From Babesia bovis T2Bo (taxonomy: Eukaryota; Apicomplexa; Aconoidasida; Piroplasmida; Babesiidae), in the NCBI RefSeq assembly GCF_000165395.2, contig NW_026261572.1:1-64000 (forward strand): a DNA stretch of 64,000 bases. The letters run 5' to 3'. Below are positions 41,289 through 42,071 of the stretch, piece by piece. The stretch's first letter is position 1, and each line of letters starts with the position of its first letter. Both the position numbers and the translations under genes were made by a program. The notes below the pieces were generated by a model that saw only the letters and a program-made list of their open reading frames with translations, did not search any database and was not told the DNA's origin.

Positions 41289-42071
41289 ATGGGTATATCT
41301 CGTGACAGTAGGCACAAACGCCGTTTGACCGGTGGTCGCTTCCCCGTCCACAAGCACAAGAGGAAGTATGAGATGGCTCGTCCCGCTTCCAACACCAAGC
41401 TTGGTACTAAGTTGGTGCGCAAGGTCCGTTGCCGTGGTGGTAATTTGAAATTCAGGGCCCTTCGTTTGGATTCTGGCAACTTTTCTTGGGCCTCCAAGAG
41501 TAAGTATTTATATTTTATATGATAGCATATGATGATATGATACCATCTGAGTTTTTTTGCTGAAACTCTTCTTAGCTGGAATTACCGACTGATGCTAATT
41601 ACCAATGGTTGTATGTGGAAAACATGTCATGTTTTTATTAATGATTGGTTCTTCTGTTGTGATTATGTAAAATGGTTCCTTGCGTTATGTAATCTTATTT
41701 CAGACATTTGCCGTAAAACCAGGATCATGGATGTTGTCTACAATGCCAGTAGCAATGAGCTTGTACGTACCAAGACTCTGGTTAAGAACTGTATCGTAAC
41801 CATTGATGCCACTCCATTTAAGATCTGGTTCAAGAACACTTATGGACTGGATATAGTAAAGCCTAAGGCTGAATCGTCTGAGGATGCTGCTGCTGTTTCT
41901 GAATGCGAGAAGCACATCCCCAAATCACTTTTGGAACAGTTTGCTTCTGGTCGTTTGTACGCTTGCATTAGCTCCCGTCCTGGTCAAACTGGTCGCTGTG
42001 ATGGATACATCCTTGAAGGCGACGAGCTCACCTTCTACCGCAGGCGTATGGACAAGAAGAAGCGCACGTAA
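41289..42071 (+). CDS. RPS8: 40S ribosomal protein eS8
   Basis: Two exons, 41289-41499 and 41704-42071, 192 aa. Unmistakable eS8: MGISRDSRHKRR.TGGR near the start, KRKYE.ARP, NFSW, then RKTRIMDVVYNASSNELVRT, DATPFK and a C-terminal ISSRPGQ.GRCDGYILEG and YRR. Small-subunit ribosomal protein. The 204-nt intron (41500-41703) is far longer than the 34-40 nt usual here and contains a box C/D snoRNA. Human RPS8 also hosts C/D snoRNAs, so the host-gene link is ancient or convergent. Confidence 0.97.
41523..41597 (+). ncRNA. Intronic box C/D snoRNA guiding SSU rRNA 2'-O-methylation
   Basis: Inside the eS8 intron. Terminal stem TAGCA (41523-41527) pairs with TGCTA (41593-41597). Box C ATGATGA lies at 41529-41535, D' CTGA at 41547-41550, an imperfect C' (TTGCTGA) at 41557-41563, and box D CTGA at 41589-41592. 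The guide 41574-41587 is a 14-nt perfect complement of the universal SSU rRNA sequence CGGUAAUUCCAGCU. The fifth nucleotide before box D (A, 41584) pairs with the U of CGGU. By the box-D-plus-five rule this is the position methylated in yeast as Um578 (snR77) and in human as Um627 (SNORD65). I see no clear target for the D' guide. Confidence 0.9.

What the first reader, a model, noticed from the sequence alone, without database searches (positions are those of the whole stretch)
41523..41597. Box C/D snoRNA in the eS8 intron aimed at the decoding-site-adjacent U (yeast Um578 / human Um627)
Seen: terminal stem, box C, D', C' and D in correct order, and a 14-nt perfect antisense to the universal CGGUAAUUCCAGCU of SSU rRNA directly upstream of box D. 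Known: the nucleotide paired five bases from box D is methylated; yeast snR77 and human SNORD65 target this U, next to G577/G530 of the decoding centre. The intron is five to six times the usual length here, and human RPS8 also hosts C/D snoRNAs.
Basis: partly seen in the sequence, partly recalled or inferred. Interest (0 to 1): 0.82.

Follow-up and report, generated by a model that had tools for sequence, protein, structure and literature searches.

The report
Box C/D guide RNA in eS8 intron
[quoted passage not shown] this is a new example of an ancient, well-understood kind of RNA, with its guide in a different slot from the human, chicken and Neurospora counterparts.

Summary
Observation confirmed. 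Window 41523-41597, inside the one eS8 intron (41500-41703) of Babesia bovis, has a 5-bp terminal stem, box C AUGAUGA, D' CUGA, a degenerate C' and box D CUGA. A 14-nt perfect antisense to 18S CGGUAAUUCCAGCU ends one base before box D. The fifth base upstream of D pairs with U578 (yeast numbering), methylated in yeast, human, Arabidopsis and Dictyostelium. By my criteria it is the only C/D/stem candidate in the window; of 12,000 shuffled windows, 1 candidate had a guide of 14 nt or more. No Rfam family reaches its cut-off. Addition: human SNORD65, chicken and Neurospora guides use the 5'/D' slot, this one box D. The D' slot has no rRNA partner better than chance in the references used. Expression, methylation, conservation in piroplasms and B. 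bovis's own rRNA were not tested. New member of a known kind; ordinary.

The parts
41289..42071 (+). eS8 (RPS8) gene, CDS with one intron, 192 aa
   Evidence: Spliced product 100% identical over 100% to the B. bovis T2Bo ribosomal protein S8e, P0001
41500..41703 (+). host intron, 204 nt, GTAAGT...TTTCAG
   Evidence: Removing it gives the annotated protein exactly
41523..41597 (+). predicted box C/D snoRNA, 75 nt
   Evidence: fold z = -2.75, 2 of 200 shuffles as stable
41523..41527 (+). terminal stem, 5' arm UAGCA
41529..41535 (+). box C AUGAUGA (exact RUGAUGA)
41536..41546 (+). D' antisense slot UAUGAUACCAU; no rRNA partner above chance in the references used
   Evidence: (tested as the 13 nt 41534-41546): best score a 7-nt Watson-Crick match; 188 of 200 shuffled guides scored as well or better
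41547..41550 (+). box D' CUGA
41557..41563 (+). box C' UUGCUGA (degenerate)
   Evidence: the SNORD95 model has the same UUUGCUGAAA stretch here
41574..41587 (+). 14-nt guide AGCUGGAAUUACCG, antisense to 18S CGGUAAUUCCAGCU
41584..41584 (+). A, fifth base upstream of box D; pairs with the predicted methylated U (yeast 578)
41589..41592 (+). box D CUGA
41593..41597 (+). terminal stem, 3' arm UGCUA

Best explanation
[quoted passage not shown] The eS8 pre-mRNA is transcribed and spliced; the debranched 204-nt intron is trimmed by exonucleases back to a 75-nt RNA protected by the C/D proteins bound at the kink-turn formed by boxes C and D and the 5-bp stem. The 14-nt element upstream of box D pairs with 18S CGGUAAUUCCAGCU and places the U five bases from box D (yeast U578, human U627), beside the decoding-centre G, for 2'-O-methylation by fibrillarin. 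Shown: intron (by identity to the annotated protein), boxes, stem, antisense, spacing, and coincidence with a known methylation site. Inferred: transcription of this RNA, processing, protein binding, methylation.
For: Exact C and D boxes, stem and 14-nt guide with one spacer base; the stem abuts the boxes as the canonical C/D kink-turn needs (rule recalled). Only candidate by my criteria on both strands of the window; 1 of 12,000 shuffled windows reached a guide of 14 nt, before counting that the +5 base is a known site. That U is tabulated as 2'-O-methylated in four distant eukaryotes, in a comparative table of C/D families (its bold marking for families traced to the last common eukaryote ancestor was not visible to me), and as 'DC-A site', over 85% modified in yeast. 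Of 14 permissive Rfam matches on the sense strand of the intron, 12 are typed CD-box snoRNA, 1 scaRNA and 1 bacterial sRNA. Sense strand of a ribosomal-protein intron; in P. falciparum 9 of 18 listed C/D snoRNAs are intronic and homologues of the snoRNP proteins were reported. Intron longer than the species mean.
Against: No Rfam family reaches its gathering score in the window: SNORD65 scores 18.5 against 41, SNORD95 26.6 against 55. Weak C/D matches also fall on the rest of the intron (DdR5, snoU83), so weak Rfam matches alone prove little. C' is degenerate and D' has no recognisable target in the references. Expression and methylation untested; orthologous introns could not be fetched; B. 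bovis's own rRNA not seen. The published list of 18 P. falciparum C/D snoRNAs names no Um578-type guide, so conservation in Apicomplexa is not shown; that list covers far fewer RNAs than the 'more than 100' predictions it was filtered from.
Confidence: 0.9

Rival explanations
1. Chance assembly of boxes and a short rRNA-complementary word in an AT-rich intron.
For: A C/D/stem candidate without regard to a guide is common: about 1.6 to 1.8 per shuffled window. 1 of 12,000 shuffled windows did reach a guide of 14 nt or more. Guide plus box D alone occurs once in the viral-contig collection.
Against: Rate of about 1 in 10,000 per window, before counting that the +5 base is a known methylation site and that the element lies on the sense strand of an intron. 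The one viral match shows no RTGATGA in the 140 bases upstream that I read by eye.
Confidence: 0.02
2. A decayed or unexpressed snoRNA copy, the working guide for this site lying elsewhere in the genome.
For: C' is degenerate and D' seems orphan; the genome could not be searched.
Against: C, D, stem and the 14-nt guide are intact, and the host is a ribosomal-protein gene.
Confidence: 0.05
3. A C/D RNA whose main role is not this methylation: rRNA folding or processing, mRNA contacts, or cis control of eS8 splicing.
For: Intron flanks can pair around the snoRNA in the predicted fold, though not beyond chance (z -1.21, 27 of 200 shuffles as stable). A C/D RNA of T. brucei is reported to act on mRNAs (review passage).
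Against: Guide length, spacing and target follow the methylation rule exactly and land on a known site.
Confidence: 0.03

Closest known systems
SNORD65 / HBII-135 (Rfam RF00571, clan CL00057), human Um627
   Same: Shares the 15-mer UAGCUGGAAUUACCG with the Rfam consensus, one spacer base before the next box, same target U.
   Different: In the SNORD65 consensus the guide precedes CAGA in the 5' half (read here as the D' slot); in B. bovis it precedes terminal box D. Covariance score 18.5, below the 41 cut-off. Human host gene not checked in any call (recalled: SNHG29).
Yeast snR77 (RF01181), Um578
   Same: Same target nucleotide.
   Different: A yeast paper calls SNR72-SNR78 'cluster genes', not an eS8 intron; its guide slot was not seen in any call.
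Neurospora Nc CD24 and chicken GGgCD16
   Same: Guides of the corresponding U with 13-nt antisense; both intronic.
   Different: Neurospora guide is D', chicken guide is 5'; chicken host is mRNA CR391615, not RPS8.
Dictyostelium CD21 and Arabidopsis snoR77Y
   Same: Corresponding target U, Um571 / Um580.
   Different: Guide slots not seen; Dictyostelium C/D genes are intergenic except CD38.
P. falciparum PFS1-PFS18
   Same: Same RNA class, canonical C and D boxes, often in or beside ribosomal-protein or ribosome-biogenesis genes.
   Different: None of the 18 is listed for the Um578-type site.

Membership tests
Box C/D snoRNA (class) | Box C RUGAUGA near the 5' end | tested here: met
   AUGAUGA 41529-41535
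Box C/D snoRNA (class) | Box D CUGA near the 3' end | tested here: met
   CUGA 41589-41592
Box C/D snoRNA (class) | Terminal stem joining C and D | tested here: met
   5 Watson-Crick pairs UAGCA/UGCUA
Box C/D snoRNA (class) | Internal C'/D' pair | tested here: inconclusive
   D' exact, C' two differences from consensus
Box C/D snoRNA (class) | Antisense element next to D or D', target at the fifth base | tested here: met
   14 nt, one spacer, U578 of the L008 SSU paired with A41584
Box C/D snoRNA (class) | Stable RNA bound by Snu13/15.5K, Nop56, Nop58, fibrillarin | not testable with these tools
   No RNA or protein-binding data held
SNORD65 / RF00571 | Covariance-model score at or above the gathering cut-off | tested here: not met
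   18.5 bits against 41; no gathering match
SNORD65 / RF00571 | Guide in the D' slot | tested here: not met
   Guide is at box D
SNORD65 / snR77 functional group | Guide aims at U578/U627 of 18S | tested here: met
   on reference 18S, not on B. bovis's own
SNORD65 / snR77 functional group | Methylation of that U in this species | not testable with these tools
   Needs methylation mapping

The most novel reading that the evidence does not exclude
In the Babesia lineage the guide for the decoding-centre Um578 is not a direct continuation of the D'-type guide seen in human, chicken and Neurospora. It was rebuilt or moved into the box-D slot of a different C/D scaffold inside an eS8 intron, so that output of a small-subunit protein and of the guide for a small-subunit decoding-centre mark are tied to one transcript; the D' slot may guide an unidentified Babesia target.
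Probability: 0.2. Interest if true: 0.45.

Novelty: new member of a known kind. Interest (0 to 1): 0.3.

Why it matters
In the rows listed by my searches for snoRNA with Babesia, Babesia bovis or Theileria (20 of 24 papers; 10 of 3,580; 12 of 16) no title or abstract start is about snoRNAs of a piroplasm; most of those texts were not opened, and genome-database annotation was not seen. If true, this adds a C/D guide with a named target in a parasite group for which those listings showed none, supports deep conservation of a decoding-centre mark, and gives another case of a guide changing slot and host gene while its target stays fixed.

Tried and rejected
Rfam SNORD95, SCARNA18 and snoR117 resemblances: they rest on the box C region and the stretch around D' (AUCUGAG). 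They would matter if the D' slot shared their targets, but it pairs no better with the SSU, LSU or 5.8S references than shuffled guides (188 of 200 as good or better; one further match had 9 pairs, 3 of them G-U). The LSU references are incomplete or interrupted and none is Babesia, so this is not final.

Second snoRNA in the intron: weak Rfam scores at 41600-41706 (DdR5 19.3 against 70, snoU83 16.3 against 50) judged chance.

In-window intron lengths: 42 candidate pairs against 20-34 in 5 shuffles, too noisy, so I rely on the published mean.

Whole-genome search for rRNA, other copies and other guides: not answered in nine tries. SSU pattern in viral contigs: no match.

Arabidopsis paper PMC7464842 uses the name snR77 for a putative RNA with no rRNA target predicted there; not used as evidence.

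Full report
WHAT IS THERE. The window is Babesia bovis: the spliced product of 41289-42071 is 192 aa and 100% identical over its length to the T2Bo ribosomal protein S8e. Its one intron is 41500-41703, 204 nt, GTAAGT...TTTCAG; removing it gives the annotated protein exactly, so the public gene model must use the same intron (inference). On the sense strand of the intron lie, in order, UAGCA (41523-41527), U, box C AUGAUGA (41529-41535), 11 nt, box D' CUGA (41547-41550), C' UUGCUGA (41557-41563), the 14-nt element AGCUGGAAUUACCG (41574-41587), A, box D CUGA (41589-41592), UGCUA (41593-41597). The element starts 23 nt after the first base of the intron and ends 106 nt before its last. Alone, it folds at -15.3 kcal/mol, z -2.75, 2 of 200 shuffles as stable; the whole intron is not unusual (z -1.21, 27 of 200).

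TARGET. The element is a perfect 14-nt complement of CGGTAATTCCAGCT. All 9 rDNA-bearing loci L002-L010 hold it, but they were chosen by a pattern containing it, so that is not independent support. In the 1800-nt SSU of L008 it starts at 575, so the A five bases upstream of box D (41584) pairs with U578; equating this with yeast numbering rests on the recalled length of yeast 18S. Published primers contain the sequence: CCGCGGTAATTCCAGCTCCAAT in a semi-nested PCR for B. odocoilei and CGGTAATTCCAGCTCCAATAGCGT for Theileria. B. bovis's own 18S was not read. The site is tabulated as Um578/snR77 in yeast, Um627/HBII-135 in human, Um580/snoR77Y in Arabidopsis and Um571/CD21 in Dictyostelium; the first three also stand in a comparative table of C/D families; a yeast review tabulates it as over 85% modified, conserved in human, 'DC-A site'.

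CHANCE. A scan for a box C-like word, CUGA within about 25-110 nt and a stem of at least 4 pairs finds exactly one candidate in 64 kb on both strands: this one, stem 5, guide 14. Against two SSU and two LSU references, 12,000 dinucleotide-preserving shuffles gave 19,132 candidates, of which 367 had a guide of at least 10 nt, 101 at least 11, 15 at least 12, 4 at least 13 and 1 at least 14. Smaller runs: 3000 shuffles with one SSU and one LSU, 3 with 12 or more and none with 13; 100 shuffles with four references, 1 with 13 and none with 14. So about one window in ten thousand would show as good a candidate. The match of the +5 base to a known methylation site and the sense-strand intron location are not counted in this and lower chance further.

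FAMILY. No Rfam family reaches its gathering score anywhere in the window. In permissive mode 12 of the 14 sense-strand matches in the intron are typed CD-box snoRNA, 1 scaRNA and 1 bacterial sRNA: SNORD95 26.6 bits (cut-off 55), snoMe18S-Um1356 26.2 (50), SCARNA18 23.6 (40), SNORD50 22.4 (42), SNORD65 18.5 (41) among them. Two weak C/D matches also fall on the rest of the intron, so weak matches are only mild support. The SNORD65 alignment is telling: the 15-mer UAGCUGGAAUUACCG is shared, but in SNORD65 it lies in the 5' half before CAGA, and the alignment needs insertions of 2, 16 and 7 nt and deletions of 5 and 1 to bring the two together. Neurospora Nc CD24 is tabulated as a D' guide of 13 nt and chicken GGgCD16 as a 5' guide of 13 nt. 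Here the guide is at box D. So it works like snR77/SNORD65, but by score and guide slot it is not filed as a member of RF00571. Whether the slot changed by shuffling of modules or by independent origin cannot be told from one sequence. [quoted passage not shown] The slots in yeast, Arabidopsis and Dictyostelium were not seen.

D' SLOT. The 13 nt upstream of D' (41534-41546) have as best-scoring match 7 Watson-Crick pairs in the reference SSU; 188 of 200 shuffled guides scored as well or better. It is orphan against these references, which are not Babesia and include incomplete LSU; a Babesia-specific target is not excluded.

HOST. That vertebrate RPS8 hosts C/D snoRNAs is borne out for chicken: GGgCD37, GGgCD43 and GGgCD47, homologues of U38, U39/U55 and U40/U46, all with 28S targets; the chicken Um578-type guide is hosted elsewhere. 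The shared host is therefore best read as the general tendency of C/D guides to sit in ribosomal-protein genes. In P. falciparum 9 of 18 listed C/D snoRNAs are intronic and another 6 lie downstream of ribosomal-protein genes; none of the 18 is listed for this site. The host intron is about 3.4 times the B. bovis mean of 60 bp.

VERDICT. A very likely true, conventional intron-encoded box C/D guide for the decoding-centre Um578-type site. New as a described example so far as my searches go (listings; passages of PMC9778586 and PMC5660447), not new in kind. What is not shown: expression, methylation, conservation in related species, and other copies in the genome, since the genome search did not complete.

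Noticed in passing
window 8251-10812 and 43306-44175: ORFs matching Pfam VESA1_N (611.6 and 45.1 bits): the eS8 gene ends about 1.2 kb before a VESA1-type (variant erythrocyte surface antigen) ORF, so a housekeeping gene sits near members of a variant antigen family.
   Followed up: no
window 47684-60871 (-): Uninterrupted 4396-aa ORF with DUF3638, DUF3645 and Vps62 matches.
   Followed up: no
window 31597-33900 (-): 768-aa ORF with an NLI-interacting-factor-like (NIF) phosphatase domain.
   Followed up: no
window 41595-41599: A branch-point-like CUAAU overlaps the 3' arm of the snoRNA stem; another, UUAAU, lies at 41638-41642, its A 62 nt before the end of the intron. If the first were used, splicing and snoRNP assembly might compete.
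   Followed up: partly
L002-L010: Nine contigs deposited as bacterial genomes carry eukaryotic-type SSU rRNA (8 match SSU_rRNA_eukarya, L009 the microsporidian SSU model), some with 5.8S and LSU, L004 with group I introns, i.e. probable contamination.
   Followed up: no
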